Source: Blastomyces gilchristii SLH14081 (lineage: Eukaryota; Ascomycota; Eurotiomycetes; Onygenales; Ajellomycetaceae). From it: a stretch of DNA of 64,000 bases. Positions within the stretch are counted from its first letter, which is position 1, and every line of letters begins with the position of its first letter. The translations under genes and the position numbers were made by a program. The stretch is taken from assembly GCF_000003855.2 (NCBI RefSeq), contig NW_003101669.1:613740-677739 (forward strand), written 5' to 3'. Of this stretch, positions 19,190 to 50,346 are shown piece by piece. The notes below the pieces were generated by a model. That model saw only the letters and a program-made list of their open reading frames with translations. It ran no database searches and had not been told where the DNA came from.

Positions 19190-20400
19190 CTGAGACATCT
19201 TTATCTACAGCTATAATAACTTCAACTTTATGATCTTACTGTCACTCATCTCATCATTCTTCTCTTCATTCTTCAGAGTTATAAATATTGTCTATTTCTT
19301 TTTAACTGAACTGAATGACTCAGCTGTCTGATCTGACTTTATACTAACAGTCTGCTTCTTCTTCTTTCTCTTTCTCTTCTTATTCCTCTCTATAGCAGTT
19401 ATATTAACAGAGACAGCAGTCTGCTGATTCTCTGTTATTTACATGTCAGTATATACATTTTGTATATACATTTTACTAATGAATTTACATGCTGTAGAGA
19501 TAATTTATTACTTATCAGACTGCAAGCTGCAGTGTTTACTTAGTAAATTATAGTGATAATTTATACAGACTCTCTTCAACATGTAAGAGATTATAATACA
19601 CTTAATAAACAGATTATAACTCTTCTCACATGAGTCACCCAGTGAGATGACTTTGATATCACAGCTGTGAACAAGTGCTGATTCTATATTTATTATTCTT
19701 TTTAGCTGAGACTTAAAATTCTTCTTATACAGCACTATATCTCTCTTAAGCTTCATCTCTCACAGCTGTGTAATGACTCTACTGTCATTCTTAATAATCT
19801 ATTCTATCAGCAGCTGTAGTCTACATTCAGATGTTCACATGTTGATGAGCTGCTGGCATGACTGCTGAAAGACAGGTGCAGGCGGGTTGATGATTATTAT
19901 TATTATTATTCTTTCATTATACTCATATGCAAGCGAAGCTTATGATGAGTCCTTGCGTGATGTTAAATACAGGTCAAGTGTTAGTTATACAGGAGGAAAT
20001 ACAGGTGTTGAGACCATGTCAAGATAACAAGAACATAGGAAAATACAAAGGAGTGACAATTAGATACATGCGATAATAACTTCCCAGCCCAGGAACATAG
20101 AGCGATTCATTGGAGCGATTTGTACACCTCTGTATTTATTAGAAACCTGAGGTGCTTGAGTTCCAGATTTAATATATCCCTGCGGGTTTCGAACCCACGC
20201 GCCTTGGTTTCCCACGCCAAGGCGCTACCAGGTGGCCGCATTAACCATTCGGCCACCGGGGCGGCGGGTTGATGAGCTGCTGAGGCTGCTGAGAGTGAGA
20301 CAGAGACAGGTTGACAAGCAGTGCAGGCTGCTGAGTCTCTAGAACTTACTGAGCTTGCTCTGTACTATTATTAACTGTAATTTCATTATTTCTGAGCTGT
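19190..20400 (-). pseudogene. Helitron-1 reverse-strand accessory gene, split by SINE-1
   Basis: A minus-strand coding region downstream of and convergent with the helicase, matching the one in Helitron-2 (62870-63640). In reading order it has a Gln/Pro-rich N-terminus, a charged segment starting MKLKRDIVLYKK (open frame 19508-19756), and a very basic stretch (NKKRKRKKKK, near 19380) that looks like a nuclear localisation signal. SINE-1 is inserted in the N-terminal part. No family is recognised. Ends are approximate and the start cannot be fixed. Confidence 0.45.
19894..20262 (-). mobile_element. SINE-1, tRNA-derived SINE (369 bp), reversed
   Basis: The reverse complement begins GCCCCGGTGG with Pol III box A and box B, and ends in a hairpin followed by (AAT)n. 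It is flanked by perfect 13-bp duplications GGCGGGTTGATGA at 19881-19893 and 20263-20275. Helitron-2 retains the empty site near 63527-63539. It is almost free of C-to-T damage, unlike its Helitron host. The open frames inside it are not genes. Confidence 0.93.
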
Positions 20401-22169: not shown

Positions 22170-23730
22170 GTTCAAAAATACACTCAGTTAATGTGAAAAA
22201 AGATGCTTTCTCAAATGCTATTTCTGAGTTTGAAATTCTGAAGAGAAGAAAGATAGAAGAAATAGAGAAATAACAAGTTCTTGAAATACAGAAACTTGAA
22301 AAAGCAAGCAAGATTCTTAAAAAGCAGTGTCTGAGTGAGATGAATGAAGAAGTTCTGTTAATTCTTCATACTCAGACTAGATAACTACAGAAGATGATCA
22401 AGTTCAAACTTGGAATTTCAAACACAGTTCAAAAAACATTGAAAATTCCAAGTATAATTACTGACTCTTCATTTTACTCTTCTTCTTTTTGTACTTCTTC
22501 TTCTTCTTTAAATTAGAAGAAAACATATACTCAAGCAGCTGAATCTGCTGTTACTAAACCTGCTGTCTCAAAATATACTCAAAATCCTAAGAAAACTGAG
22601 AAGAATACTGCTCATACTTCTATTCATAGAAAAGTAGAGAAAAAAATGTAAAAAGAGAAAAACTTTCAAATCTTCAGAAATAGAAGACTTATTCTTAAAA
22701 TCTTAAATCAGAACATCTTGCAAAGAAACAAGCTAAACTCAAATCTCATTTTCAGAATCAGAAATAAAATTAATCAGTAGTTTTTTTCTCAGTTGATAAT
22801 TAATATTGAAGTTCAAAAATCAGTTATAGCTTCAATTAAGCTAGTCTTCTTTGAAAACTTCATCATTCTGACTACAATATCTGAATTCAGTGCAGAATTC
22901 CTTATTCAGAATGAGAATCTCTGAAAATTAGTAGTAGAATCTTTGTTAAACATAATAATTCTATCTGAGAGAGATGAAAAGTGAGATAAATTCATTCTTT
23001 ATAATATTTCAGTTGAAATTTTTGACTGTGAAGAAGAAATACTACTTCTCAAAAATAAATTAGAAGAATACAACTCTATTCAACTGAGAAAAGAGTCTGT
23101 ATAACTAAATTCAATTGAGTTCAGATAAAGCAGAAGAAATGCCTCTGTTCTAGTATATATAAAGACACTTAAACAGTTAAAGATCTCTGAAGTAAGAGTA
23201 GCAGGTTTGAAAATAAGAGTTCATAAATACAAAGACTCAAGAATGAATCTCAAAGCTTAAACACAGTATTCAAATCATCAGAGATATAAACACTTTACAA
23301 TCTCTTGTTTTAGAGACTCAAAATGTGTATTCTGTGTCAGAGATCACAAAACTAGTGAGCATAAATGTGACATATGCTTAAAAAGAGATAAAATATGTTA
23401 ATACACTCTACTTAAATGCTCTAATTGTAAAGAAAAATATATATCTAGCTCAAAAGAATGTATGTTTGCTTCAAGAACTCAAAAGAACTGAAGAAAAGAT
23501 GAAGCTCAAAGTCAATCTAGAACTGAAGAGAATAGTCAAGTCAGTAAATTCACAACTGTAAGCTTAAAAAGAAGAAACTCTCAACTATCTAAATCTTCAA
23601 TCTTCAATTCTTCAGCTAAATGTAAACAGAATTTGAATTCTCACACTTCTGTTAAGATTAGAGAATTGAGAAATGACTCTGATAATAAACTAGATATAAC
23701 ACAAGCAGTTAAGATTCCTACTTTTTAAAA
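22170..23730 (+). pseudogene. LINE-A ORF1 remnant (gag-like, zinc knuckles)
   Basis: A degraded frame, Lys/Glu/Ser-rich in its first half (22170-22700). At about 23310-23470 it has closely spaced Cys/His residues, reading CVFCVRDHKTSEHKC and then CSNCKEKY and C, the CCHC knuckles found near the C-terminus of Tad1-type ORF1 proteins. Such proteins bind LINE RNA. Stops interrupt the frame and the start is not determinable. ORF2 follows after about 140 bp. Confidence 0.7.
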
Positions 23731-23869
23731 TAGTTATAATCTACTATCTGATGATAGTGATTAGATTCTACTCTATCTCTACTCTCTTTTAGTATGAATA
23801 TACAACAAAAACAATAAAAAAAGTTTAAAAACTCTTCAAAAATCACATTTATTTTAAAATAATATGAAT

Positions 23870-26034
23870 AGAAACTCAAATTGCATTTATTCTTATCTTC
23901 AAATTGTATTTGAATAAAAAGTTGATTTTATACTGCTTCAGAAACCGAATTTTGATGCTGAGTAAAAATACATTATTTCTCATTCAAGCTACTACACTAC
24001 TGCTTTCTATTTTAAAAGTCTGAGATAAAGTCATGAGAAGTGATCTATGAAAGAAAGAGATTAAGATATTAATTTGATTCTAAGATTTAATATCATGTCT
24101 GACTCTGATATTCTGATGAGTGATATTATAGATAAAGAGAATGAGTTTGATACTATACAGCTTATAAATATCTATAATGAAAAGTCATTGAAGAAAAATA
24201 ATAATATCTGAACAATTAATAGAGAATTTCTAAACATATCTTCATTAAGAAACTCTATAATTGCAGGAGATTTCAATACACATCATCTCTGATAAAATTC
24301 AGAATGCAAAAGAGCAGTAAGAGCTGATAATCTGATTAAATGAATCTTTGAGTATTCAATAGATTTAGTTAACAAGTCTGATTAACAAACATTCTTTAGA
24401 AAAGATATGAAACAGAAATCTATTATAGATTCAATCTTCATGTCACAAAATCTAATGAAAAAAAGACTTATAAACTGATTTATTAATTCAAATAAGACAT
24501 CAGAATAAAATCATGAGATTATTCATTTTAATATTGAACTGAGTGAAAAATAAATAAGTGAAAATTCTCTTCTCTCTAATCAGTTTAACTTTGAAAAAGC
24601 TGATTAGAAAGCAGTTAAAGAAAGTATAAAACTGTTAAAATCTCAAAGACAGAGTGAGCTATATTGAAATCCTGATCAAGATATCTCAAATGAAATGCTT
24701 GAGAATAGAGTAAAGCTTATTACATCTATTATTCTAACAAGTGTTAGAGATAATATTTCAAAGAGAAAGTCTTCTGAGTATTCAAAATCTTGATAAAATG
24801 AGAATATCTTATCTAAAAGAAAACAATTAGCTACTGCTAGAAGAGATTGAAAGAATGATATAATATCTGATAAAGAGTTCAAAGCTGTCAGAAATGAATA
24901 TTTTTCAGATATTAAAAGAGCTAAAACAGACTGCTGAAATAAATTTCTTAAAGAAGCATAAGAAAAGAAAGTTTTTAAAGCTTTTAACTATACTAAAACA
25001 AGAAGTATGGCAAAACTTTCAGTCTTAGAATATGAGTTTCAGAATGAATCATATACAGCACACTCTTTTGAGAAAAAATGTCAAGCTTTTATAAGAATTC
25101 TCTTTCAAAACTCATCAGATTCAGAGAAAGAGAAAGAGAATATATTACTTCTTAACTATATTAATGAAAATGACTGAAAATGATCTGATCTTACATAAGA
25201 TGAATTAGAGTCAGCTATCTTCTCAAGATCAGTTAAAACTGCTACAGGGCCTGATTCAATTAATTACTTAATTATTCAAAATACATACTTCTACTTAAAG
25301 AATGAATATTTTGAGCTCTTTTTTAATCACTTGAAAAATGAATAGTATTCTGAATGCTGAAGAGAAGTTACTGAAGTGATTCTTATAAAATCTAATAGAA
25401 AAACTTCAATTTCTAAGTTATATAGAGTAATATCTCTATTGAACTGTCTAGAAAAGGTTTTAGAAAAGATAATAGCTACTTAACTATCTTTTATAAGCTC
25501 TATTAATAACTCTCTTTTATTCAGTGAATAAATGAGAGATAGAAAACAATGTTCTACAATTGACACTGTTCTCTCAGTTATTCATGATATTTAAATAGCA
25601 AAGTATGAAGATCTGTTCTCAACTGCAGTTTTTATTGATATAAAAGAAGCATTTAATCATGTTTCAAAGTCAAAGTTAATTCAGACTTTGAAGATGTTAA
25701 AACTGTCACTTTCTCTAATAAAATGAGTTAACTGTTTTATATCTAAAAGAATCATACAACTTTTCTTTGATGAAATAAAATAAGATAAGACTGAGATAAA
25801 AATAGAAGTACTGCAAGAATCTTCAATCTCACTCATTTTATTTGTAATATACACTGTATACCTATTCAAAAATTGAAATATGAAAATAGTGTGATCTCTG
25901 AGTTATATGAATGATATTGATCTACTCTACAGCTCAAAAACTATCAAAGAAAATTTGAAAGTGATTGAAAAAGCTGTAAATAAAATCTTTGTTAGAGCAG
26001 ATATTAATTAAATTCAATTTAATATGAATAATAC
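23870..26034 (+). pseudogene. LINE-A ORF2 part 1: endonuclease and reverse transcriptase
   Basis: An apurinic-type endonuclease is read at about 23870-24540, with IIAGDFNTHH near 24250 and SIIDSIFMSQ near 24420. It is followed by RT: ATGPDSINYLI near 25240, a finger/palm region through 25700, and the catalytic box as SYMNDIDLLYS near 25900 (Asp changed to Asn). TGA replaces many Trp codons. G1-A interrupts at 26035 and the frame resumes after it at 31748. The enzyme would nick the target and copy LINE RNA onto it; this copy is dead. Confidence 0.85.
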
Positions 26035-26343
26035 TGTGGCGGGCTGCGCCCGATCAATCATATAGACTATTTCGTTACACACCACAGATTTCAACCGCTC
26101 CGCCACGAACGCGTACGCTCCGATTCTTAGCCATTCTTGATCGCTCATCCTCGGCCACCACGAACGCGTATAGATTCTTCCGCTCTGAAGCTTCATCATG
26201 TACACCATCACATACATGTATAAATATTCACTTTGATTACTGATTCTCACACTTTCTCTTTCTTTTTCTTCTCTAACATTTTTCTCTTTGTTATATAAGA
26301 CCTATTAATATAATACTGATCTATTCAGTATAGGCCTCTTATA
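26035..26343 (+). repeat. G1-A 5' LTR (309 bp)
   Basis: Starts TGTGGCGGGCTGCGCCCG and ends CTTATA, where other copies have CTTACA. It carries one copy of the 44-bp unit that is doubled in G1-B. The first ~150 bp keep many CG dinucleotides. Confidence 0.9.
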
Positions 26344-26890: not shown

Positions 26891-27790
26891 TGGAAATGCT
26901 TACAAAACTGAGTGTAGATGAAGATGTTATCAGTTTATTAATTAATCAAGATTGATATATCAATGAACAATTGAAGAATTGTATGAAATAGAAATTTTAT
27001 TCATGAATGAAAGCATGTGAATCAGCATTACAAACATCTGACAATATTATCAAATATCTTGATATTCTGTTCTGAGACACTGCTATGCAACAGAAAGTAT
27101 TAAATTGATTACAGAGTATCTGACAGAGAAGCACTTCTCTTACAATATTCATTTCTGACTTCAACATCAAGATTCTAGAAGCAGGTGATCAATCTTGAGA
27201 GAATTGAATAAAGATTAGTATGCTTAAGAAGACATTAATCTTCACACTCTTACAGACTCTTGTAAGTATAGATAAAGATCAGACTTATGAAGGTTTCTGT
27301 ACACAGCTTCAGACATTGAATGAGTGTCTTATCAAGCTCAAAAGTATACAGAACAGAGATACAAGATATTATACTTCAGTTATTCACACATCTGTGCTGA
27401 GAAATAATAATAATGATACAGATGCTGTAAACTGAGTAGACTTAAATATCTATGTATAAGCAAGAGTTTCTGCTGTCTGAACAGGCTTCTGAGTCTCTGA
27501 GATCACTTCTGAAGAAGTTGTCAATCAATGTTAATGAGAAGTGTGAATCAACTGTAACTGATCAGAGTATATTACTTTTAACTATCAATCAGCCTATGTA
27601 TCTTCTTATTCAAAGAATGAATCAGTGTCTGTCTGCATCAATCACATTACATTAGAGAAGGATTTAAAAGATAACTATGAGAATATTCTGATGAAACAGG
27701 GAAAAGATTAGCTCCTGTTTAAATTTATAAACAGAAGCTTGAAGAGATCAGATGATAATAATTTGAAGAGAAAATAACAATAAATACAAT
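26891..27790 (+). pseudogene. gag: G1-A gag remnant
   Basis: Frames matching G1-B 47650-49000 include the open stretches 27220-27435 (starting MLKKTLIF) and 27452-27655. The region lies between the leader and protease, the gag position. The protein looks helical and hydrophilic, as capsid proteins do. I do not see a certain zinc knuckle. Stops and a shift of frame near 27440 show that it is not functional. Confidence 0.65.
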
Positions 27791-30700: not shown

Positions 30701-31438
30701 TATCTTTATAAGTTTTACAATCACTTATAAGATTATTGATATAATCTGTTTCTATATATAGAGATTGCTATCAATGAATAAGATACTGTTTTAACAGACA
30801 TAAGTCTGTTCTTTCTTATATATAGTTATTACATGAAAGTGTTGAATCTTCTAGAGATCACACAGTTCACACTGAACCTCTGCAGTTTAATTCAGATCAC
30901 TGATAATATAGTAATAAAGCTCTGAGATACTCATAACTGAGCAGAGATCTTCATAGTAACTATAAAACAAGATCAAGAGAATTAAATTAATGTTTATTAA
31001 GACTTCACTGAACAATATAAGATAGAAGACTTGATATAATTGAATCTTAAGAATATACAGATCACATATTCATCTTATATACTGAATTACTGCTACATCA
31101 AGTATAAAGTAATAGAAGTTTTAGATAGTCATAACTACTGTCTTAACATATTATCAGAAATTCATGATATCTTTTATACAAGCTTGCTTCACTGCACTAT
31201 CACTGATCTATTCTCTTCTCAACTGACTTCTGACTGACAGCTGTCAGACATCATAGAAGAAGATAATGAGCTTGAGTGAGAGATTGAGAATATTCTTGAT
31301 AAGAGACCTCACATCTGCAGCTGATAATATCTCATGAAATGAGTCAGCTATAATCAACTGATCTGAACTCTGAGTTTCATGCTATCTGAAACAGCAGCTC
31401 TTGATCAATGAGAACTGCTTCTGAAAGAGAGAGGCTAA
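27791..31438 (+). pseudogene. pol: G1-A pol remnant with C-terminal chromodomain
   Basis: The protease region is at about 27790-28090 and RT at about 28480-29330, with the catalytic box as YLNNILIFTN near 28950 (both Asp changed to Asn). RNase H runs about 29370-29760. The integrase zinc region ends near 30300 with CNHCSS, and its core runs about 30370-30720. A chromodomain-like end follows at about 31260-31435, read as IENILDKR, then YLMKW, then LLLKE. Chromodomains on integrase direct insertion to marked chromatin in known chromoviruses. Minus-strand open frames at 28761-29203 are shadows. The copy is inactive. Confidence 0.85.
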
Positions 31439-31747
31439 TGTAATGAGCTGCGCTCAATCAATCATATAGACTATTCTGTTACACTTCACAGATTTCAACC
31501 ACTGTGCCATGAACATGTACACTCTGATTCTCAGTCATTCTCAATTGCTGATCCTCAGCCACTATGAATGTGTATAGATTCTTCCGCCCCGAAGCTCCAT
31601 TACATACACCATCACATATATGTATAAATATTCACTTTGATCACTGATTCTCACACTTTCTCTTTCTTTTCCTTCTCTAATGTTTTTCTCTTTGTTATAT
31701 AAGACCTATCAATATAATACCGATCTATTCAGCGTAGGCCTCTTACA
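31439..31747 (+). repeat. G1-A 3' LTR (309 bp)
   Basis: Direct repeat of 26035-26343, starting TGTAATGAGCTGC and ending CTTACA. Differences from the 5' LTR are mainly transitions. Confidence 0.9.
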
Positions 31748-32241
31748 AAAACTGAGTTAATTCATTTCTTTTCTAGATTCAATGAGCAAGAACTATCTCT
31801 AACTCTTTTAAATAGAGAGATTAAACCCAGTTTAAATGTCAAATGATTAGAAGTATGGTTAAATTTCAAGTTGAATTTTAAATATTATATTCAACAAAGA
31901 ACTGTTAAGGCAGAAAGACTATTGAATAACATAATCAGACTATTAAATACAGAGAGAGATCTATTCTTCCAGACTATGAGACAGTTATATATAGCCTGTA
32001 TTACCTCAGTAGCTGATTATGAAGTTCAAGTTTAATGAAATAATCAAGGAAATTTCACTGAACTCTTTCAAAGTCTGTAAAACAGAGCTTTGAGAAGAAT
32101 TCTGAGAGTATTCAAATCATCTTCTATTAAAGTAATAGAAATTGAAGCTTCAATTCTCTCTTCTGCTATTAGATTTGAAAAGGCCTGTATAAACTATGCT
32201 CTGAGAGTTATAAAGATGAGCTCAAATCATATAATCAGAGA
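31748..32241 (+). pseudogene. LINE-A ORF2 part 2: RT C-terminal region
   Basis: Resumes the LINE frame after G1-A. It reads through a region ending LRRILRVFKSSSIK near 32090, which is also present in LINE-B (minus frame 35277-35474). This is the segment between RT and RNase H in Tad1-type elements. hAT-A interrupts at 32242, within the 8-bp duplication ATCAGAGA. Confidence 0.8.
32234..32241. repeat. Left target-site duplication of hAT-A
   Basis: ATCAGAGA precedes the left terminus and recurs at 39867-39874 after the right terminus: a perfect 8-bp duplication, typical of hAT. Confidence 0.92.
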
Positions 32242-33705
32242 TAGACTGATCGTGTGACCGTGTCTGAGACCAGGATCAAACTTTACAGTTATTATATTGC
32301 CTAAAAGCATTACTTCTGATCATTGTTTATATTTATCACATTGATCTCAAATCACATTATTTTAAATATTAAAGGTCTCAGATTCACTTTTCAAATAAAA
32401 ATCTGATTTCAGATAAAGAATATATTTAAATTCTTAGTTATATTTTCATTCTGATCTCATTATTGAAAATGATATTAAATGAGATTATGAAATTATTTCT
32501 CACTTATATAATATCATAATATAGTGCTCATTTGTTGAAAATTTAATAGAGAGTATTATTAAATATCATTACTTTTCTGAACACAGATTATAATTCATAT
32601 AATTTTAATTATGAAAAAAATATAAAATACAAAAAAAAACAAAAAATAAAAAACAAAATAAAAATAAGAAAAAATCACAATGAAAAAAAAAAAGAGAAAG
32701 AAAAAAAAAAGAAAAAAAAAGAAAAAAATAAAAAAGAAAAATAAAAAAAATCAAGATTGCAGAGTCACAGTATTCTTAAAATACTCACTTTTCAGAGTCT
32801 TTGCAATATTTATTATCAACTGTGTATCTCTTACAGTGAGAATAACACAGCTGTAATAAGTTATTATCTTAACATTATCTAATAAATAATCAGTATATAT
32901 CTGTATAAATGTGAATAATTAGAAAATATACACTTAAAAAGTGTGATCAGAGTAAACTCTGCTGTCACTTGAATAATATCAAGAGTAGAATACTGAAATC
33001 AATGATTTCTCTTATTAATTGTATAAATAAGATATATAAAGATGATCTTGAGAAATATAAGATCTTCTGACTTCTGATAAAAATGAATCTCATGAAGAGA
33101 CTCTATTTTTATAATATCAGAGACTGAGTGTTATTAAAAAGTGTTACTTTCATATAATGTACATGCACTTACTACAGTAATTCACTCTCTGTATATATAG
33201 TTAAGAGTTATAACTTTCTTATACTGTATAACTCTTTCTGAGATGCTGCTGTCAGTTTGTAACTCACACAGTCTCTCAGTTCAGTATATACTGTATGTAT
33301 ACAGTTCTATATGCTGAAGCTGTATTGATTATTATGATCTGACATGATACTTACTTTTCACAGGCTATGTTTCATTTGATGAGAGGAAAGAAAGATATAA
33401 CTGTTGTTTTATTAAAAGAGAAATGAATAATTAGTATTATTGAATATAACTTAATTCATCTGTATTTAAAATTTGATTAGTCTATACTCTTCAATTTGAG
33501 AATTTCTAGAAGTGTTTTAATCATTTTCATATCATCTTGAACGTAGTGATGAGTTGAAAAAGAAGAGAAAGAAGAGAAGAAAGAAATAAGAATAACTTAT
33601 CTTTATAATATAAAAATAGAGAATTACTATAATTATTCTTTCTAGTAACAAAGATCTGTTTTCTGCATGTATCTCTAATATAGATTATATAATAACTGTA
33701 TATAA
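32242..33705. other. hAT-A left arm, noncoding, with A-rich tract
   Basis: No coding signal. At about 32606-32750 there is a nearly pure A tract broken by single G, T or C. The remainder is AT-rich. Short open frames such as 33527-33715 on the minus strand run toward the LINE-B tail and are not supported. Confidence 0.6.
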
Positions 33706-33719
33706 AGAATATCAATAGT

Positions 33720-35564
33720 ATTATTATTATTATTCTTCAATTATAGATGTATGCAGTCAGAGACTATGACATTTACTTGAGAACCTTTAGATCTCAGAGT
33801 TTTTCCTATATCTATAGATTTAACTATTATACATTTATCAATTTCAGATATGTAAAATCAGAAAATTCCAGATCAGAATATAAAAACTGTTTATAAATTG
33901 CAGTATATCAACACCTTCTGATACTTTGAAATCATTTGAAAATATCATGACAAAGAAAAAGAGAACATAGTCTTAAAGATAGACACATTAAGTAGATAGA
34001 TAGAAAAGAACAGAAAGAAACAAGTACAGTAAAGAGAGACTATAACAAAATAAAATTATTAAAAGATAGTATATAGCTGTTTTAACAGACTATATCTAAT
34101 CAATTTCCATCTTTTCATATTGAGATACTTCTGAATTCAGCTATTTTCTTGTAGTGGCTTGAGTTTCTGAAAGAAAGTCTATTAAGTATTTAATTCCTGT
34201 CTCAGTTGAGAATAATAACCTCATATTTAATTGATTGAAATCATACTTCTTCTTTAATCTGACTCTCAGACTATTATATAATGCACAGTGTATTACAATA
34301 TACTCAGAATTCTCATTTACATTGCAGAATGAGTATTCTATTGAATCAAATCTATCATTAAATCTTTGTATGTAAGATTTGAAATAGCCATGTTCTAGTT
34401 TCAGCTGTATTATAGATGAAAATATTTTCTTTTTACATTTAATTAAACAAGATTTTCACTTAGGTTTTATTTCAAATCTTGAATAATGTATACTCTTCTT
34501 TTGTTTCTACCAGCTTTCATTTCACTTATCTAAACAAGATTCTTTTATTTTTCTCTTTATAAAAGATCAGGACACAATTTTTTGAATAGATCTGCTTAAT
34601 TCTGAACTCTTTTTTACAGCTGAATCAGCCAATTTATTGTCATGAATATTTATATGAGCAGGAACTCAATGTAGATGAATTATCAGTTTTGATGTTCTTC
34701 TCTTTTGAATTTTCAAAACAGAGTTTAAAATCAGTTCAAGATTCATTTGATCATTATGAATCTGACTCTTTCTAAGTCTTTTTAAAGCAGCTTGACTATC
34801 AGAGAATATTCATGTCTCTTTCAAACTATTTCCTCTTTTATGAGATTTTATTTCAATGAGTTTGAAAGCTTTCACTATTGTAAATAGTTCAGCATCAAAG
34901 ACTTCAGATTCACAGCCTAAATTTCAGAAATCTGAGATAAAATTGATATTATCTTCAGTATAAGCAATGCCTGCGCCTAATCTATTCAAATTCTCATTTT
35001 TTGAGTCATCTGAGTAAATCAGAATAGAGTCTTTTATATTGATTATAGAGATCTTCTTCAAATGCTGTTCATATTCTCTTTCTTTAGATAGTTCACTTAT
35101 TTATAAGTCTATGAGAGATTTCAGCTTTTCTCTTCAGAGAGATATCTTCTCATGATCAATTTTCTCAACATTTAATGTAGAAAATTGATTCTTAATAAGT
35201 GAACATAGTCTATACAGTTGAGAGGGCATTTTATTTAAAGCATTATTCACATTTCAATCAAGAAATCTATTTCAATTCAGTTCATTTCCTGAGTTAACTG
35301 ATGAAAATGAAGAAGAGACTCTTTTCTGATTATATAATTTACACTCATCTTCATGACTCTCAGAGTATAGTTTATACAGGCCTTTTCAAATTGAATAGCA
35401 GAAGGTGAAATTGAAGCTTCAATTTCCATTGCTTTAATAGAAGATGATTTGAATACTCTCAGAATTCTTCTCAAAGCTCTGTTTTATAGACTTTGAAAGA
35501 GTTCAGTGAAGTTACCTTGATTGTTTCATCAAACTTGAACTTCATAATCAGCTACTGAGGTAAT
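33720..35564 (-). mobile_element. LINE-B, 5'-truncated Tad1-type LINE (1.85 kb), reversed
   Basis: The (ATT)n run at 33720 is the complement of the (AAT)n tail, so the element reads leftward. It carries the same 3' UTR and hairpin as LINE-A, the RNase H domain (about 34600-35010), and the end of RT (35277-35474, LRVFKSSSIK). It stops at 35564, a 5' truncation typical of LINEs. Perfect 14-bp duplications AGAATATCAATAGT flank it at 33706-33719 and 35565-35578. It lies inside hAT-A. Confidence 0.93.
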
Positions 35565-35578
35565 AGAATATCAATAGT

Positions 35579-36384
35579 GTATATATTGAATAAAGATAAT
35601 ATTACTATGCAATACTGTAGTCATTTCTATATATCTCTGAAAGCTATTAATAGTTTCTTTGTCTCTTTATATTTGATAAGTTAATAATATATTCTGATAC
35701 ACTTTCCCTTTCATCATTATCATCATTATTATTATTATCATCATCATCACTATCATCATCATCATTATTATTATTATTATTACTATTATATCATTGCTAG
35801 CTGTCTTCTCTGTCTTCACTCTCTCTTAACACTTATTAAAATCAATTATATCATTCTTCTTTAAATATTCTGCAGTCCTGCGGATCATCAAGGTATATAA
35901 GCATCATCACAGATTGAAGAGAGAGAAGAAGAAGGTGTTTAAGTATAGAGAGATAGATTGTAAGATATATTATAATGCCTTGAAGAGACTCTGTAAGAAA
36001 GTAGAATGATAATGATTTTAAGTAACACTTCTGATAGATTTAGACTGAACTAAGTATAGAAATAATACAGATGACACTGCTTATAAGAGATTGAAAAAGA
36101 AGACAGTGAAGAGTCTTATACAGTAGTGATAAGACTAGAAGAAGTTCTGAGAATGATTTAAGATTGAGATGAAGAGAGAGAGAAAGAAGAAAAGTATTAT
36201 TATAAATAAGCAGTGACAGAAGAAGATTAAGAAGATATTAAAGTAGAAGATAAAGAAGTCAAAACTGATAAATTTTTTATTAAGAGATAATGATTTTTGA
36301 TAACACTTCTGTTCTCTAATTGATTAGCAGGAGCTGACAGAGAACAAGGAAATTGAGGCCTTGTTCAGATCTTAAATATGCTTC
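35579..36384 (+). other. hAT-A interior with ATC/ATT microsatellite
   Basis: A trinucleotide-rich tract (CAT/ATT units) runs about 35713-35793. From about 35880 to 36260 the plus strand has Lys/Arg-rich coding-like sequence with no open frame, perhaps the front of the frame at 36385. No family is recognised. Confidence 0.5.
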
Positions 36385-36615
36385 ATGATTCAAAATATTA
36401 AGAAGATAGCTCTGCTCTCTGAGCATGTCAATCTGCTTACTGCTGAAGTGAAATCTGAGACAGCAGATCAGAAAATGCAGGATTTTAAGATACAGATTGA
36501 TCTGACTGAGAGAGAGCAGCAGAAACTCTTCTCTGAGAACATAGCAGAGAGAGATTTTGAGATGATTATTATCTCAGATAAGAAGAAGAAGAAGAAGAAT
36601 AAGAATAAGAAATGA
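36385..36615 (+). CDS. Hypothetical coiled, Lys-tailed frame inside hAT-A
   Basis: A 76-codon open frame starting MIQNIKKIALL. It is rich in Glu, Lys and Gln with heptad-like spacing (coiled-coil-like) and ends in a poly-Lys run. It lies upstream of the hAT transposase on the same strand and could be the tail of a longer degraded second protein of the element (coding-like sequence from about 35880). A simple-repeat origin for the Lys tail is also possible. No function is assigned. Confidence 0.3.
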   Translation: MIQNIKKIALLSEHVNLLTAEVKSETADQKMQDFKIQIDLTEREQQKLFSENIAERDFEMIIISDKKKKKKNKNKK

Positions 36616-37279
36616 ATTATAAAGAATAATAAGAAGAATGACAAAGAGAAGAAAGATAATAAGTAGAAAAAGTTTTTTTCTTTTTATATTAATTAGTTAT
36701 AAGTTCATAACTATTAGTTAATAATTAAAATTAATTTTGAGTTTTCAAAAATTATTGTATAAATTGTAATCAATTATCAATATCAGAAATAATATATATA
36801 TATATATTCAACTATTATGTTACTATAATATATAAGTATCAACATTTTTTCAATATTGATATTTATAATATTAATATATTTTTAATGATATTATCTGATA
36901 ATATAATTTGATAACACTCTCTTTCATAATATTAATATATTTCAAGAAATATGACAGAGATTAATCAAGATTATTTATTTACTTTTATATATTAATAATA
37001 TTCAATCTGAGTTAGTACTAAAATTATAACTAAGCTAAGAAAGAAGATTATTTTCTCTTATATTCATTCTTCTTATATATATCAGTAATCAGTTATTGAA
37101 AATAAATTATTATCTTTCTTAAATTATTATTATATCTTCTAAATTCACTTCTTTCACTTCTTTTACTTCTATTAAAGATTCATAAACTCTTCAAGAAATC
37201 ACTATGAATTATAAAGTCTATGTTATTTATAATTTAACACAGAATGCTCTCTTTTAATTATGATAAATAATCACTTCAT

Positions 37280-39560
37280 TCTTCATATCTGATTCCAGGT
37301 CATGAAATTTATAGAAAACTTAACACAAATATCAAGATGAACTATGAAATAATTATTAATAGATTGTATTATAGATTACTGAAGAGTCATCTCTCTGCTG
37401 TAATTACTATAACTTCATTCAGAAATATTCATTATAAACTGATTATAACTCTGAAGAAATTTTCTGACATCTGAAGTTATCAGAATGCAGACAATAAAAG
37501 AAAAGTAATCAGAAAATTACTACTGAGCTGATAAGTTACTCTATCAGATAATAATTTTTAATAATACTCACTTTCTAATTTGAAGAAAATCATGTGATAA
37601 TAATTATATATCAGTACTCTGATTTCATAACTCTTATCTGATAACTTCTGTGAATAATTACTTTATATATATATATCTCTGAATCTTTCTCTTCAATTAA
37701 TTGAAAATCCTGAATTCTGAACACTTCTTCAAATACTTAATTCAAATCTTTATATTTTATATCAATTCTGTCTTCAGTCTAACCTTGAGATATACTACAA
37801 AGTTAATATGCAATATCTAGAATCAGAGTTGAAGAATTATCAAAGAGTGTCTCTCACAGTGAATGTATAATCTAGTACAAATAATGTTACATTTATAAGA
37901 GTTATATGTTATTATATTGATAAGAACTGAACATATCAAGAGACATTAATTGAATTTAAATCATTGATCAGTAGTCATACTGAGAATTATATAACAGAGA
38001 TATTAATGACTATGATTAAAAATAACTATTAAGATATTAGTCTCAGTCTTCTTATAATTATAACTGATAATGCTGTGAATAACTATACTATGATAAAGAG
38101 CTTGAAGCAAAAATTGACTTTGTATTTCTGAAATAATAAACAAGGTCATATTCTCTGCATTGCTCATATGATTCAACTTGTAATATAAACACTAATAAAG
38201 AATCTTAACATTGAGATGAAGAATAATGAGATGACTGATTCTTGAGATAAGAATAAAATAAAAGTGATTACTTAAGTAACTTTTATATTCATTTTATAAA
38301 AGATAATGTTTTTTAATACTACTTTTTAATATTGTTTTTTAATAACACTTTTTACTAATGCTACTGTTAATTTTGAATAGATTGACTAATAATTTAAATA
38401 TCACAGATTTGAAATATTACTAATGTAATTTGTATCTTCTCTAAATAATAATAATAATTCTATAATATTCAATAAATAAATAAATCAGTTATATCACTGA
38501 ATATGATACAGAATGTTAGAACATGGTGAAGTTCAATATATAAGATAACTATTCAGACTCTTCAACTGTATCAGATGATTGATTATTAAGTATAACACTC
38601 TAATTGAGAAAAGATTCAGATATTGAAACTTTCTGATATGAAGTGAACTCAGTTGAAATATATGATTGATTTACTGTTTCAGTTTTATAAGATAATAAAG
38701 ACAGTTTCAATTACTTATACATCAATGCTGCAGTCAGTCTGATGAGTGTATAACAGTGTATTTACTCATCTTAAGAAGCAGTTGAATCACTTAAAAAGAA
38801 ATTCAGTCTGAGATAATACTATAGCATAGACTATTATTACTGTAAGAAATAAACTGATATATTACTACAGTAAAACTGAATAATTATTTACAGAGTACTA
38901 TGCTGTAGCAGCTCTACTAGATCTCTCTTATCAAGTTAATATCTACACTTCTCAAGATTGAACAGAGAAGAAATAAGACTTGTATATTAAATTAGCTCAA
39001 GACTACTACAATGTCAACTATCAGAGATTTAAATAAGCAGATGTTAAAGATGTGAAGACAGTGAAATACAATTCTCTAGTAAGTAACAATCTTTGATAAC
39101 ACTTTATATTATATAGAACTATAATACTAACTTTGAAACAGAACTTACATATACTAATTACAACTGAAAATCAGGCAAAACTATATACTTATAAAACTGA
39201 ATTTGACTGCTATCTTCAAGATGATTCAATAAATTTATACATCAAATCAATTCTAGAGCTATAAAAAATTATTAAGAGTATATATTTAACTGTTGTACTA
39301 ATAATACATGATATTCTGATAATTTCATTAACAGAGATGAAAATGAAGTGAAAGATCAACTCAAACTGAGATATTTATCACTATTATCAGAGACAATTAC
39401 AAGAAGAAACAATCAAGAAACTCATGATTGTAAAATATGAAATTATCAGACAGTTAAATACCTCTGATTACAGTATATCAGAGAAGTGTAGTTTTCATGA
39501 GAAAGTAAAGAATAAACATGTATAAGAATGTATTTAGTTATTTTATAAGTGTTATCAATA
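37280..39560 (+). pseudogene. hAT-A transposase remnant
   Basis: Recognisable hAT catalytic-core landmarks in order. IITDNAVNNYTM lies near 38057-38092, with the second catalytic Asp at about 38066. It is followed by LCIAHMIQL near 38155-38181, the conserved Cys-x2-His segment that follows it in hAT transposases. ALLDLSYQ near 38905-38935 is the C-terminal block before the dimerisation region. TGA and TAA stops interrupt throughout, and no single start can be chosen. AATAACACT-like intervals around 38330-38380 may be introns or decay. The enzyme would cut and paste hAT-A and its derivative hAT-B; this copy is dead. Confidence 0.75.
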
Positions 39561-39866
39561 ATCATTATCAAATTCTGATTATATAAGCAATCACTGAATG
39601 AACTGAATAAGACTGAATTTGATCTTCAGTCTCAGTTTCATTCTGATTTTGAAAGAATGATTATCTTTCACAGTTTATTCTGAGAAATTACTTTCATTTT
39701 ACTGTTCTTGAATTAAATCTGGTCATTTTTCACATCATTTCTCTCAGAAATGATTCATTTTCAGATTTTTTTGAGACTTGATTCTGGTGGGACTCACTTC
39801 AAGAAATGTATGAGACCAGATCAAATGAGACTAAATGTGAAATTCATGGTCCCGGCAGCCAGTCTA

Positions 39867-41105
39867 ATCAGAGAAAGAGTCTCTTCTTTATTTTTATCAA
39901 CTAACTCTGAAAATGAACTGAATTGAAATAGATTTCTTGATTGAAATGAAAATAATTCCTCAAAGAAAATGTCTTCTCAACTGTACAGACTATACTCACT
40001 GATTAAAAATCAATTTTATTCTTTAAATGTTGAAAAAGTTGATCATGAGAAGATATCTCTCTGAAGAGAAAAGCTTGAATCTCTTATAGACTTACAAATA
40101 AGTTAACTATCTAAAGAGAAAGAATATGAACAGTATTTAAAGAGAATTTCTACAATTAATATAAAAGACTCTATTCTGATTTATTCAGATAACTCAAAAA
40201 ATAAGAATTTGAATAGATTAGGCACAGACATTGCTTATACTGAAGATAATATTAATTTTATCTCAGATTTCTGAAATTTAGGCTGTGAATCTGAAGTCTA
40301 TGATACTGAACTATTTACAATAGTGAAAGCTTTCAAACTCATTGAAATAAAATCTTATAAAAGAGAAAATAGTTTGAAAGAGACATGAATATTTTCTAAT
40401 AGTTAAGCTGCTTTAAAAAGACTTAGAAATAGTCAGTTTTATAATAATTAAATGAATCTTGAACTGATCTTAAACTCTGTTTTGAAATTCAAAAGAGAGA
40501 AATATTGAAGCTGATAATTCATCTACACTGAGTTTCTACTCATATGAATATTCACGATAATGAATTGGCTGATTTAGCTGTATAAAAGAGTTCAGAATTA
40601 AGCAGATCTATTCAAAAAATTATGTTCTGATCTTTTATAAAGAGAAAATAAAGGAACTTGTTTAGATAAGTGAAATGAAAGCTGGCAGAAACAAAAGAAG
40701 AGTATACATTATTCAAGATTTGAAATAAAACCTAAGTGAAAATCTTGTTCAATTAAATATAAAAAGAAAATATTTTCATCTATAATACAGCTGAAACTAG
40801 AACATGGCTATTTCAAATCTTACATACAAAGATTTAATGATAGATTTGATTCAATAGAATACTCATTCTGCAATGCAAATGAGAATTCTGAGTATATTAT
40901 AATACACTGTGCATTATATAATAGTCTGAGAGTCAGATTGAAAGAGAAGTATGATTTAAATCAATTAAATATGAGATTCTTATTCTCAACTGAGACAGGA
41001 ATTAAATACTTAATAGACTTTCTATCAGAAACTCAAGCAGCTACAAGAAAATGACTGAATTCAGAAATATCTGAATATGAAGAGGAGAAAATTAATCAGA
41101 TATAG
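39867..41105 (+). pseudogene. LINE-A ORF2 part 3: RNase H and C-terminal region
   Basis: The frame resumes after hAT-A. An RNase H domain is read at about 40180-40600, with ILIYSDNSKN (first catalytic Asp present), YDTELFTIVKAF (Glu) and WIFSNS (Asp changed to Asn). After it a Cys-bearing C-terminus has CNANENSEYIIIHC near 40870, the CCHC-type end seen in Tad1-clade ORF2 proteins. LINE-B has the same region in reverse at 34100-35150. Confidence 0.85.
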
Positions 41106-41482
41106 TCTGTCAAAACAGCTATATACTATCTTTTAATAATTTGTTTTATTACAGTCTCTCTTTACTTTACTTTTTTCTTTCTATTCTTTTCTATCTATCT
41201 ATTTAATGTGTCTATCTTTAAGCCTGTGTTCTCTTTTCTTTTGTCATAATATTGTCAAATGATTTCAAAGTATCAGAAGATGTTAAAATACTGTATTTTA
41301 TAAACAGTTTTTATACTCTGAGCTGGAATTTTCTGATTTTGCATATCTGAAATTGATGAATGTATAATAGTTAACTTTATAGATGTAGGAAAAACTCTGA
41401 TAACTAAAAGTTCTCAGGTAGATGTCATAGTCTCTGACTGCATACATCTATAATTGAAGAATAATAATAATAATAATAATAA
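41106..41482 (+). other. LINE-A 3' UTR, terminal hairpin and (AAT)n tail
   Basis: Noncoding 3' end. The hairpin AGTC-TCT-GACT lies at 41429-41439, followed by GCATA, then GAAGAATAATAAT with eight or so AAT units to 41482. The same hairpin is in LINE-B. The SINEs carry an equivalent hairpin with a different but still paired stem (see findings). Confidence 0.85.
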
Positions 41483-46520: not shown

Positions 46521-46697
46521 ACGCGTATAGATTCTTCCACTCTGAAGCTCCACCATGTACATCATCACATACATGTATAAATATCCACTTCAATTACTGA
46601 TTCTTGCACTTTCTCTTTCTTTTTCTTCTCTAATATTTTTCTCTTTGTTATATAAGACCTATCAATATCATACTGATCTATTCAGTGTAGATCTCTT

Positions 46698-47071
46698 GCC
46701 CCGGTGGCCGAATGGTTAATGCGGCCACCTGATAGCGCCTTGGCGTGGGAAACCAAGGCGCGTGGGTTCGAAACCCGCAGGGGATACATTAAATCCGGAA
46801 CTCAAGCACCTCAGGTTCCTAATAAATACAGAGGTGTACAAATCACTTCAATGAATCACTCTATGTTCCTGGGCTGGGAAGTTATTATCGCATGTATCTA
46901 ATTGTCACTCCTTTGTATTTTCCTATGTTCTTGTTATCTTGGCGTGGTCTCAACACCTGTATTTCCTTCTGTATAACCAACACTTGACCTGTATTTAACA
47001 TCATGCAAGGACTCATCATAAGCTCCGCTTGCATATGAGTATAATGGAAGGATAATAATAATAATAATATA
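46698..47071 (+). mobile_element. SINE-2, tRNA-derived SINE (374 bp)
   Basis: Inserted near the 3' edge of the G1-B 5' LTR, with perfect 14-bp duplications AGTGTAGATCTCTT at 46684-46697 and 47072-47085. It has a tRNA-like head with box A and box B, the hairpin AAGC-TCC-GCTT near the 3' end, then an (AAT)n tail with one GAT. It differs from SINE-3 at few positions. The open frame at 46704-46901 is accidental. Confidence 0.94.
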
Positions 47072-47639
47072 AGTGTAGATCTCTTACACTAGAAAAATGT
47101 TCATTATCTTCTTATTAGAAATGATTATTCACACACTGTCTTCTTATTAGAAATAATTATTTATCAAGATATTTAAACACATAACAACATATAAGAAATA
47201 GAGAAACAGTCAAACAGTTAAGTAAATACTGAGTTCTCAGATAAAAGCTTGCTTATCAGTCACTCTGATCTTATAATAAGATCTTATAAAGAGAGTAAGA
47301 TCTTATAAGAGAATATCAGTGAAAGATCTGAGAGTTCTGACATCTCAGATATATGAGATATTTATATAATTACACATCTGACAATCAATATAATCATGTC
47401 TAATGATAATATGAAACTCTTAAATGTGAGTATAGATATGATATCACAGTGACTTCAAGTAATGTTGAAATTACAACAATAATAAATAGCTGATATACAT
47501 GCAACTTAACAACATTAATATAAAGAGATTTAATAATTATCACAACAAGAAACTCATGCAATTTTAACATCTACAGAATCAAGTACAAAAGCACTGAAAG
47601 AATGCTTAGATACTTCTGCATATTTCAATGCTTCTAATC

Positions 47640-49948
47640 TCACTCTCTACTCATCATGAAGAATGAAAATGCTTATAAAACTGAGTGTAGATAAAGATGT
47701 CATCAGTTCATTAATTAATCAAGATTGATATATCAATAAATGATTGAAGAATTGCATGAAACAGAAGTTTCATTCATGAATGAAAGCATGTGAATCGGCA
47801 TTGCAAATGTCTGATAATATTATCAAATATCTTAATATTCTGTTCTGAGACTAGACTGGCCGCTGAGATCATGAATTTCACATTTGATTTCATTTAATCT
47901 GGTCTCATACCTTTCTTGGTGTGAATCCTGCTGAGACTAGTCATTAAAAAAACATGCAAAGTAACTATATATGAGATCTTAAAATGAAACCATGACTTGA
48001 AAAAAATGAGAAAGTGGTTTCATTTAATCTCATTTAGTCTCATTCTTAGCATAAAGTTACTATTTTTAGACATTTTAAGGTTTTTTTTAGACTATTTTTA
48101 ATTTTTTAAAAAGTAACACTTTTTGATAATGCTCAAATGAGATTTAAAGTCATTTAAAACAATAAAAATAATTTAAATTGAGAAGTGAAAATCATGATCT
48201 CATTTGAAAAATGTGGCAAGAGTAGACAGTAAGTCTCACTGAAACAGTATGAGACTACTATCTAATGTTAAAACCGTGTAATGAGATCGGTCGAATTGGT
48301 AATAAAACTATCAAAAAATCTGGTTCTGGTCTCAGACACGGTCACATGGTCAGTCTATCTGAGACACTGCCATGCAACAGAAAGTATTAGATTGGTTACA
48401 GAGTGTCTGACAGAGAAACACTTCTCTTACAACATTTATCCCTGACTTTGACATCAAGATTCTAGAAGCAGGTGGTCAATCTTGAGAGAATTGAATAAAG
48501 ATTAGTATGCTCAAGAAGACATTAACTTTTGAACTCTTACACACTCTTGTAAGCATAGATAAAGACCAGACTTATGAAGATTTCTGCACACCGCTTCAGA
48601 CATTAAATGACTGTCTTATCAAGCTCAAGAGTATACAGAATAGTGGCAGAAGATGTTACACTTCAGTCACTCATACACTCACACTGAAGAACAGCAATGA
48701 TGCAGATGTTATAAACTGAATAGATTTAAATGTCTATGCATAAGCAAGAGTTTTCACTGTTCAAACAGACTTCTGAGTCTCTGAGATTACTTCTGAGAAA
48801 GTCACTGATTGATGTCAATATAAAGTATACATCAACTGTAACTGATTAGAATACATTGCTTCTAACTGCTGATCAATCTATGTATCTTCACACTCAAGAG
48901 AAAGATTAGTATCTTCTCAATGAAGAGAAAGATTAGTGTCTTCTTGTTTAAAGAATGAATCAGTACCTGTCTGTGTCAACCACATTGCAGTGAAGAAAGA
49001 TTTGAAAGATAACTATGAGAATGTTTTAATAAAACAGAGAAAAGATTAGCTTCTGTTCAAATTTGTAAATAGAAGCTTGAAGAGATCAGATAATAATAAT
49101 TTAAAGAGAAAATAACAATGAATGTAATTCTTATATCTACTGTAATTGATAATATATATAATATGAAAGTCATGATAGACAGTGATCTATGTCATTACAC
49201 AATGATTACATTTTCAATTATAAGATGTTATAATCTTCAGCATATTCTCTTACTAAGACTCTGACTTCTTGCAGAATTTAATAATTCAAAAGATATTCAC
49301 ACTTGTTATATGATAAAACTAAACATAGATGTTGAACAACATTAATATGAAGATGTCTATGCATATGAAGTTGAGAATCTTGACTATAATCTTATGCTAG
49401 AACTTGCCTAACTATCTGAACAAGACATCTTGTTAAATGCTTAAAACAGAAGCTTAATATTCCTGAATAATGATAGAATTCACAAAGATGATATTCACAA
49501 GACTATAAATCTTACACAGATCTCTGCCAATGCTTATGAAATACTCTGAAAAAGAAGTCATTATTAAAATTATTAACAGAGTCACTGACAAAGTCACTGA
49601 TAGCAGAATTATATATCAATCTATTCTGTCAGTCTGATCAATATTAAGAAAGTTCTAGAAAAGTTATTCTGTACTATAATAACAGATTTTTACACAAAAC
49701 TCTCTCAACAATATCATGAATATCTAGATGTCTTTTAATAAGATAATATTATAAATATACTCTCTTTACAAGGCTCAGAAGTGAACCACAGTATCAAGTT
49801 AGAAAAGAAGAATAATAAGAACTCTGAGTCATCATGAGACTCTCTTTATAATATGTCTTAAGATGAACTTCTTCTTCTTCAGAAGACACTCAATAATCTG
49901 TTGAATAAGAGATTTATATATATTAGTAACTCTTCTACTACAGCTTCT
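47640..49948 (+). pseudogene. gag: G1-B gag and protease remnant
   Basis: Matches G1-A 26870-28620. It includes the open stretch 48507-48719 (starting MLKKTLTF), the counterpart of 27220-27435, and the protease region near 49120-49440. hAT-B interrupts it at 47852-48357 and SINE-3 plus G2-B follow at 49962. Relative to G1-A there is a short local repeat around 48890-48945 (an AGAGAAAGATTAG motif twice). Confidence 0.7.
47852..48357. mobile_element. hAT-B, non-autonomous hAT element (506 bp)
   Basis: Termini TAGACTGGCC and GGTCAGTCTA, with perfect 8-bp duplications TCTGAGAC at 47844-47851 and 48358-48365. Its first ~85 bp match the right end of hAT-A and its last ~35 bp match the left end, so it is an internally deleted relative. 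It has no coding capacity. It lies in the G1-B leader/gag region; G1-A has the empty site near 27069. Confidence 0.93.
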
Positions 49949-49961
49949 ATTCTCTTTGTAA

Positions 49962-50332
49962 GCCCCGGTGGCCGAATGGTTAATGCGGCCACCTGGTAGC
50001 GCCTTGGCGTGGGAAACCAAGGCGCGTGGGTTCGAAACCCGCAGGGGATACATTAAATCCGGAACTCAAGCACCTCAGGTTTCTAATAAATACAGAGGTG
50101 TACAAATCACTCCAATGAATCGCTCTATGTTCCTGGGCTGGGAAGTTATTATCGCATGTATCTAATTGTCACTTCTTTGTATTTTCCTATGTTCTTGTTA
50201 TCTTGGCGTGGTCTCAACACCTGTATTTCCTCCTGTATAACCAACACTTGACCTGTATTTAACATCACGCAAGGACTCATCATAAGCTCCGCTTGCATAT
50301 GAGTATAATGGAAGAATAATAATAATAATAAT
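49962..50332 (+). mobile_element. SINE-3, tRNA-derived SINE (371 bp)
   Basis: Best-preserved copy. Box A TGGCCGAATGG is at 49969-49979 and box B GGTTCGAAACC at 50029-50039. Between them are a GTGGCC/GGCCAC stem and a perfect 9-bp stem GCGCCTTGG/CCAAGGCGC (49999-50025). The tRNA-unrelated body follows, then the hairpin AAGC-TCC-GCTT at 50284-50294 and an (AAT)n tail. Perfect 13-bp duplications ATTCTCTTTGTAA lie at 49949-49961 and 50333-50345. It has no protein gene. Pol III transcription and LINE-driven copying are inferred from the family type. Confidence 0.95.
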
Positions 50333-50346
50333 ATTCTCTTTGTAAA

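What the first reader, a model, noticed from the sequence alone, without database searches (positions are those of the whole stretch)
41421..41482. LINE and SINE share a 3' hairpin with compensatory stem changes: a likely LINE/SINE partnership
Seen: the LINE-A 3' end has TCAT-AGTC-TCT-GACT-GCATA, then TATAATTGAAGAATAAT. The SINEs have TCAT-AAGC-TCC-GCTT-GCATA, then TATAATGGAAGAATAAT. The 4-bp stem is paired in both although its bases differ (AGTC/GACT versus AAGC/GCTT). A T-G pair can close each stem, and the flanking GCATA, TATAAT and GAAGAAT(AAT)n are shared. Known: LINEs of the stringent type recognise a 3' hairpin, and their SINEs carry a copy of it. Inference: this Tad1-type LINE supplies the machinery that copies the SINE.
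Basis: partly seen in the sequence, partly recalled or inferred. Interest (0 to 1): 0.87.

Follow-up and report, generated by a model that had tools for sequence, protein, structure and literature searches.

The report
Fungal LINE and SINE share hairpin
In this fungal genome a long jumping gene and a short, protein-less one end in the same folded RNA hairpin although most of the stem letters differ, which is good evidence that the short one borrows the long one's copying enzyme; such partnerships are known, but this is an unusually clean case.

Summary
Both 3' ends fold alike: 6-bp outer stem, CA/CAU internal loop, 5-bp inner stem closed by U.G, UCU or UCC loop, then AUAAU[U/G]GAAGAAU(AAU)n. 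The two consensus forms differ at 12 of 22 stem positions, which make exactly 6 compensated double changes, and at 2 of 21 unpaired positions. Genome-wide, at up to 3 mismatches: 1992 LINE-type and 907 SINE-type hairpins, 0 for reversed patterns. The LINE encodes endonuclease, reverse transcriptase and RNase H. The SINE has a tRNA-like head (weak model support). Both leave 12-17-nt target duplications. The SINE body shows a weaker match to the LINE 3' UTR. One host protein points to the Blastomyces dermatitidis/gilchristii group. Fungal Tad1 LINE/SINE pairs and compensated shared hairpins are both in print: a new member of a known kind. Mobilisation of the SINE by this LINE is inferred, not shown.

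The parts
23645..26036 (+). 5' piece of the LINE copy to which the finding's 3' end belongs; interrupted by an LTR element
   Evidence: BLAST to L070 from 23780 and to L069 from 23645; repeat pair 26032-26331 / 31436-31735
31748..32245 (+). middle piece of the same LINE copy
39865..41462 (+). 3' piece of the same LINE copy (RNase H region, C-terminal CCHC-like motif, 3' UTR)
   Evidence: 91% to L070
41395..41418 (+). LINE-only upstream hairpin (CTGAGAACT-AAA-AGTTCTCAG type; one mismatch in this copy)
41420..41449 (+). LINE 3' hairpin: outer stem AGATGT/ACATCT, internal loop CA/CAT, inner stem TAGTC/GACTG, loop TCT
41450..41462 (+). shared box ATAATTGAAGAAT
41463..41482 (+). (AAT)n end repeat
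33732..35565 (-). second LINE copy, 5'-truncated; target duplication ACTATTGATATTC at 33707-33719 and 35566-35578
33745..33774 (-). hairpin of the second LINE copy (outer pair 2 broken, A-C)
19911..20262 (-). SINE copy 1 (hairpin 19921-19950; target duplication 19881-19893 / 20263-20275)
46698..47050 (+). SINE copy 2 (hairpin 47011-47040; target duplication 46684-46697 / 47072-47085)
49962..50314 (+). SINE copy 3 (target duplication 49948-49961 / 50332-50345)
49962..50048 (+). tRNA-like head of SINE copy 3; B-box-like GGTTCGAAACC at 50029-50039 (read by eye)
   Evidence: fold z -3.9, 1 of 200 shuffles as stable; tRNA model over its full length but only 13.2 bits (cut-off 29, E 9)
50078..50168 (+). 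SINE body block that matches the LINE 3' UTR (by offset, about 41262-41356 in the LINE copy)
50275..50304 (+). SINE 3' hairpin: outer stem ACTCAT/ATGAGT, internal loop CA/CAT, inner stem TAAGC/GCTTG, loop TCC
50305..50317 (+). shared box ATAATGGAAGAAT

Best explanation
A stringent-type LINE/SINE pair. The LINE (about 4.5 kb; endonuclease, reverse transcriptase, RNase H) ends in a hairpin plus the box AUAAU-K-GAAGAAU and AAU repeats. Its reverse transcriptase, at the endonuclease nick, docks on that hairpin and starts copying at the AAU repeats. The tRNA-headed SINE RNA ends in the same fold with the same unpaired letters, so the LINE enzyme copies it too. The letters of the stems matter little as long as they pair; the internal loop CA/CAU, the UC- loop and the box are what the enzyme reads. 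Shown here: shared fold (predicted), compensated stems, conserved unpaired letters, shared end repeat, similar target duplications, LINE coding domains. Inferred: docking, letter read-out, and copying in trans.
For: Same predicted fold, with equal energy for the shared core (-8.5 kcal/mol). 6 of 11 pairs changed on both sides, 0 on one side only. 19 of 21 unpaired against 10 of 22 paired positions identical (Fisher p 0.003). On 30 distinct tails 94.2% of pair cells are standard, against 19-48% when partners are slid by 1-3 columns; covariation score 0.513, reached by 0 of 500 shuffles. 1992 and 907 copies genome-wide, reversed-pattern controls 0. Target duplications: SINE 30 of 32 copies, 12-17 nt; LINE 11 of 26 copies, 12-16 nt, against 5 of 646 mismatched pairings, and a twelfth of those 26, L069, by eye (14 nt). 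PF00078 77.1 bits and PF00075 51.2 bits; PF14529 73.2 bits, cut-off 27.4. SINE: 39 places 97-99% identical to the window copy among the 40 scored best of 1152 candidates. LINE copies L069-L071, chosen for good RTs, are 98.4-98.8% alike. SINE body against LINE 3' UTR: score 44 (L070) and 48 (L010), at most 39 in 946 overlapping window pieces.
Against: The covariation is essentially one contrast between two families: within a family I see one double change (G-C to A-U in one LINE copy), of a kind that C-to-T decay could make; and of the five measures, 'pairs with a change on both sides' (218 of 500 shuffles as high) and 'further pair types' (500 of 500) are not above shuffles. Hairpin stability is not exceptional. 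No parent LINE with the SINE's stem letters was found. The body match is clear only with better kept LINE copies (scores 24-48, median 33, in 47 copies). No target duplication was found for the LINE copy of the finding itself, and 14 of 26 LINE copies lack one. Duplications of this size are common to many LINEs (recalled). The SINE duplications were not given a mismatched-pair control.
Confidence: 0.86

Rival explanations
1. The SINE was, or is, mobilised by a sister LINE family (extinct or not found here) that carries the SINE-type stem; the present LINE is only a cousin.
For: The SINE stem letters were seen on no LINE (7 of 65 places opened). The SINE body matches L010 and L021 best (48 and 47, against 44 for L070); the RT near L010 is 84% identical to L070's, so the match may go back to an older lineage.
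Against: The best SINE copies are 97-99% identical to the window copy, so a working enzyme existed fairly recently. The RT search (140 of 1703 candidates scored) lists RTs 84-100% identical to this LINE's, and a distant RT-RNase H query lists 63 places at 27-30% with none standing out. These searches favour this LINE and are capped; some places and the shorter RT class (taken as LTR type) were not checked.
Confidence: 0.25
2. The hairpin serves transcript 3'-end formation, stability or export in both elements, not reverse transcriptase recognition.
For: Hairpins near RNA ends often do this (general knowledge); no binding data exist here.
Against: The LINE is presumably made by Pol II and the tRNA-headed SINE by Pol III (inference), so a common processing signal is less natural; the signal sits just before the end repeat in both, where target-primed copying starts.
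Confidence: 0.1
3. Convergence or chance: unrelated small hairpins that happen to look alike.
For: The fold energy alone is not exceptional.
Against: 19 of 21 unpaired letters identical in register, same stem lengths, same end repeat, and a collinear match further upstream.
Confidence: 0.03

Closest known systems
Fungal Tad1-clade pairs: Mg-SINE with MgL/MGR583 (Magnaporthe) and SINE2-1_BG with Tad1-24_BG (Blumeria)
   Same: tRNA-derived SINE sharing its 3' end with a fungal LINE; both pairs stand in a table of PMC3747384 (passages), and PMC5135761 states that a stem-loop was found in Tad1 pairs of fungi (passages)
   Different: Other hosts and other sequences; I did not see their hairpins, so stem conservation was not compared
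AfuSINE2-1a with I-1_AF / I-4_AO (Aspergillus)
   Same: tRNA-related SINE whose 3' end resembles a Tad-clade LINE 3' UTR in an ascomycete (passages of PMC5063351)
   Different: The similarity reported in the passages is by sequence; the words stem-loop and hairpin do not occur in the main text
Monocot L1-clade LINE / SINE2 pairs
   Same: Shared 3' hairpin with compensatory stem changes, conserved UCU loop and 3' flank (PMC3747384 section 4.3, passages)
   Different: Plant L1 clade, other conserved flank (CGAG)
UnaL2 / UnaSINE1 (eel) and ZfL2 (zebrafish)
   Same: Hairpin with a small internal loop plus short end repeats (UnaL2), shown by experiment to be needed; recognition of stem in general and loop in particular (ZfL2), as summarised in PMC5135761 (passages)
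   Different: L2 clade, GGAUA loop and TGTAA repeats in UnaL2; functional proof exists there, not here

Membership tests
Stringent-type LINE/SINE pair | LINE and SINE share their 3' end in sequence and structure | tested here: met
Stringent-type LINE/SINE pair | short tandem repeats end both elements | tested here: met
   (AAT)n in both
Stringent-type LINE/SINE pair | target-site duplications and 5' truncation typical of target-primed copying | tested here: met
   SINE 30 of 32; LINE 11 of 26 by script, L069 by eye; many LINE copies 5'-truncated
Stringent-type LINE/SINE pair | LINE reverse transcriptase needs the 3' hairpin and copies the SINE in trans | not testable with these tools
   no binding or retrotransposition data
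Stringent-type LINE/SINE pair | no other LINE matches the SINE tail better | tested here: inconclusive
   no LINE with SINE-type stems seen (58 of 65 places have AGA before the hairpin, one change from the SINE's AGG; 7 opened; 5 of the 7 with other letters not opened); no third tail family among the 6 opened of 43 places, a pattern that covers only part of the possible stems
tRNA-derived SINE | tRNA-like head with Pol III boxes | tested here: inconclusive
   full-length tRNA model match at the exact SINE start, but 13.2 bits, E 9, cut-off 29; B-box-like GGTTCGAAACC by eye; ARAGORN 0 genes in the window
Tad1 clade LINE | endonuclease, RT and RNase H in that order | tested here: met
   RVT_1 and RNase_H in L070 pieces; PF14529 in the L069 piece, below cut-off in the L070 piece (23.3 against 27.4); order
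Tad1 clade LINE | groups with Tad1 in an RT tree | not tested
   no named reference RTs at hand; of 75 homologues, 4 of the 7 with an organism name are ascomycete (Trichophyton, Emmonsia, Podosphaera, Pyrenophora), 2 animal, 1 filed as a bacterium; Tad1-like sequences are reported for Blastomyces (PMC4595289, passage)
Tad1 clade LINE | two ORFs (recalled) | tested here: inconclusive
   L069 and the window copy share a 5' end, and L069 shows only the EN-RT-RNase H frame in 4479 bp; not pursued

The most novel reading that the evidence does not exclude
The SINE has re-coded its stem letters under selection: it keeps the helix and the unpaired letters that the LINE enzyme reads while losing sequence identity to the LINE, and so, with its small size, escapes the homology-guided C-to-T mutation that has stripped CpG from the LINE. 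The LINE copies examined show CpG odds of 0.02-0.04 while the three window SINEs keep 0.72-0.80.
Probability: 0.1. Interest if true: 0.78.

Novelty: new member of a known kind. Interest (0 to 1): 0.5.

Why it matters
It is a natural mutagenesis experiment on the LINE tail: more than half of the stem positions changed in matched pairs while nearly all unpaired letters stayed. That predicts which bases a Tad1-type reverse transcriptase reads. It also adds an abundant pair (907 SINE-type and 1992 LINE-type tails) to the few fungal pairs that I found in print, in a host group whose repeats are described as almost all gypsy elements (PMC4595289, passage).

Tried and rejected
A third element family with this tail: one search gave 43 places, 6 opened. 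Four are one internal piece of another repeat, one is a changed LINE tail, one is unrelated. No new family, though the pattern covers only part of the possible stems and 37 places were judged from their letters alone.

A second SINE or LINE with the SINE-type hairpin (L078): its neighbour is an LTR-like repeat; of the 40 scored places most matches end before the hairpin, and two other places near copies of that repeat match the hairpin part. I read L078 as a short 5'-truncated SINE piece next to the repeat, but did not open the other two.

Relatives outside this genome: no encoded relatives in genome contigs or viral contigs. 8 pattern matches in viral contigs were not followed.

Host by 18S rRNA: three calls failed; one host protein was used instead. 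A covariance model was considered and not built, because known copies would fill its hit list.

Full report
What is in the sequence. The 3' end at 41421-41482 reads AGATGT-CA-TAGTC-TCT-GACTG-CAT-ACATCT, then ATAATTGAAGAAT, then AAT repeats. A SINE at 49962-50314 ends in ACTCAT-CA-TAAGC-TCC-GCTTG-CAT-ATGAGT, then ATAATGGAAGAAT, then AAT repeats; two more SINEs in the window have the same stems, one with loop TTC, and both with a changed letter in the box. A second LINE end lies at 33745-33774 on the minus strand.

Fold. ViennaRNA gives the same structure for both: six outer pairs, internal loop CA against CAU, five inner pairs of which the first is U.G, and a three-base loop. The shared core has -8.5 kcal/mol in both; the LINE can add two more outer pairs. 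Against 2000 dinucleotide shuffles the stability is not special (LINE z -1.9, 92 shuffles as stable; SINE z -1.0, 293 as stable). The case for the fold therefore rests on covariation, not on energy.

Covariation. The 43-nt LINE and SINE commonest forms differ at 14 places. Twelve are in stems and make up six whole pairs, each still Watson-Crick; no pair changed on one side only; the two others are one loop base and one box base. The chance that 12 changes among 22 stem sites fill six whole pairs is 0.0007. All 11 pairs survived in 18 of 400,000 random sets of 12 stem substitutions and in 420 of 400,000 sets of 14 substitutions anywhere. Unpaired positions are identical at 19 of 21 and paired ones at 10 of 22 (Fisher p 0.003). 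On 30 distinct tails from 89 places (54 LINE, 35 SINE; matches nearer to the other family were dropped), 94.2% of pair cells are standard, against 19-48% when the partners are slid by one to three columns. The covariation score is 0.513, reached by 0 of 500 shuffles; two of the five measures (pairs with double changes, further pair types) do not exceed the shuffles. Nearly all double changes are the LINE/SINE contrast itself, so this is one comparison and not many events; one LINE copy has a further G-C to A-U change. Many loci were found by a pattern that includes part of the conserved box, so conservation within a family is partly selected; the contrast between the two forms is not affected.

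Genome-wide. The window lies in a 74.8-Mb assembly. The shared flank pattern has 1522 exact places, and 0 when read backwards. The LINE hairpin has 1992 and the SINE hairpin 907 places at up to three mismatches, with 0 for either reversed pattern. A pattern for SINE-type hairpins not preceded by the SINE's own AGG gave 65 places at up to two mismatches: 58 have AGA there and seven other letters. Seven places were opened (six loci and L078): six are SINE copies and L078 holds a short SINE piece beside an LTR-like repeat. No LINE bearing the SINE stem was seen.

The LINE. Copies L069-L071, chosen because their RTs are well kept, are 98.4-98.8% alike over 3.6-4.4 kb. Pieces of L070 between stops match RVT_1 (77.1 bits) and RNase_H (51.2 bits); a third piece matches nothing and the endonuclease piece of L070 is below its cut-off (PF14529, 23.3 against 27.4). 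The endonuclease piece of L069 matches PF14529 with 73.2 bits. A C-terminal CCHC-like motif is visible (motif name recalled). L069 has a 14-nt target duplication, ACTGTTAACTACTA, read by eye, around a copy of 4479 bp plus repeats; the window copy begins at the same 5' point, but no target duplication was found for it. An RT search scored 140 of 1703 candidates, all 84-100% identical. A search with a distant homologue gave 63 scored places at 27-30% identity; many coincide, the others were not checked. A PF00078 search scored 150 of 3909 candidates with spans of about 460 or 740 bases for the most part; the shorter class I take to be LTR-type RTs without a test. The window copy is broken into three pieces, 23645-26036, 31748-32245 and 39865-41462.

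The SINE. 353 bp plus repeats. The head folds strongly (z -3.9), and a tRNA model match starts exactly at the SINE's first base and spans the model, but it scores only 13.2 bits (cut-off 29, E 9), the weakest of five such chance-level matches. Of 41 places listed one is the query itself, 39 are 97-99% identical to it and one is 87%; these come from the best 40 of 1152 candidates, so older copies are under-represented. Target duplications of 12-17 nt (some with one mismatch) were found for 30 of 32 copies, without a mismatched-pair control. For the LINE, 11 of 26 copies with a visible 5' boundary have one (12-16 nt) against 5 of 646 mismatched pairings.

More of the SINE may come from a LINE. 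With the tRNA head, hairpin and box removed, SINE 116-207 aligns with LINE 3' UTR sequence in the same order and orientation (score 44 with L070, 48 with L010, 65 of 89 aligned letters identical in L010). Dinucleotide shuffles reach 44 in 2 of 3000 (L070) or 8 of 5000 (L010) and 48 in 0 of 5000. Overlapping window pieces, both strands, reach at most 39 (946 pieces). Of 1359 pieces of loci one scores 71, in L072 where a diverged SINE copy lies, and the next best 38. Over 47 LINE copies the scores run from 24 to 48, median 33, so the match is clear only with the better kept copies. I take it as likely homology, not proof.

Host. One MOSC-domain ORF in L072 is 100% identical over 97% of the query to a Blastomyces dermatitidis protein, with B. 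parvus at 87% and B. percursus at 89%. Species and strain are not settled.

Known or new. Passages of PMC3747384 list Mg-SINE/MgL and SINE2-1_BG/Tad1-24_BG among SINE/LINE pairs and describe compensatory changes in a shared hairpin of monocot L1s and SINEs. Passages of PMC5135761 state that stem-loops in Tad1 pairs of fungi are known, and summarise experiments on UnaL2, ZfL2, SART1 and R2. Passages of PMC5063351 report a Tad-like tail on an Aspergillus SINE. For Blastomyces, PMC4595289 mentions Tad1-like sequences; the main text of PMC11540331 has no whole-word SINE, LINE or Tad1; a passage of PMC3203195 reports no SINEs in three Paracoccidioides genomes. Searches (10 of 359 papers listed; 15 of 49; 10 of 508) listed no paper whose title or abstract start names a Blastomyces SINE or its LINE partner; the library lacks most subscription journals, and Repbase was not searched. 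So the pair looks undescribed as far as I could see, but its kind is known.

Mechanism. Most likely the LINE enzyme docks on the hairpin and reads the unpaired letters and the box, then starts at the AAU repeats; the SINE uses the same dock. The docking, the read-out and the trans step are inferred from precedent.

Noticed in passing
window 1-64000; L069, L070; SINE copies: CpG odds are 0.15 and CC/GG odds 0.27-0.29 in the window; the LINE copies examined have CpG 0.02-0.04 while the three window SINEs keep 0.72-0.80. This looks like C-to-T mutation in CpG and CpC contexts that spares the short SINE.
   Followed up: partly
window 32246-39864: Insertion in the LINE copy flanked by TAATCAGAG on both sides (9 nt, read by eye) with similar inverted ends; perhaps a Mutator-like DNA transposon (label recalled). 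It contains the second LINE copy.
   Followed up: no
window 26037-31747: Insertion in the LINE copy bounded by 300-nt direct repeats 85% alike: probably an LTR retrotransposon.
   Followed up: no
window 41395-41418; LINE loci: A second hairpin of about 9-10 pairs lies directly 5' of the tail hairpin in the LINE; the SINE tail shows none there. Its loop occurs as AAA or TTT in different copies.
   Followed up: partly
L069 1949-6427 (reverse complement) and window 23645: Two LINE copies share one 5' end, and L069 shows only the EN-RT-RNase H frame in about 4.5 kb; a Tad1-type LINE without an ORF1 would be unusual (recalled).
   Followed up: partly
P0001: A protein 59% identical to this LINE's C-terminal part is filed under Clostridioides difficile (3319-base contig); probably fungal contamination.
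   Followed up: no
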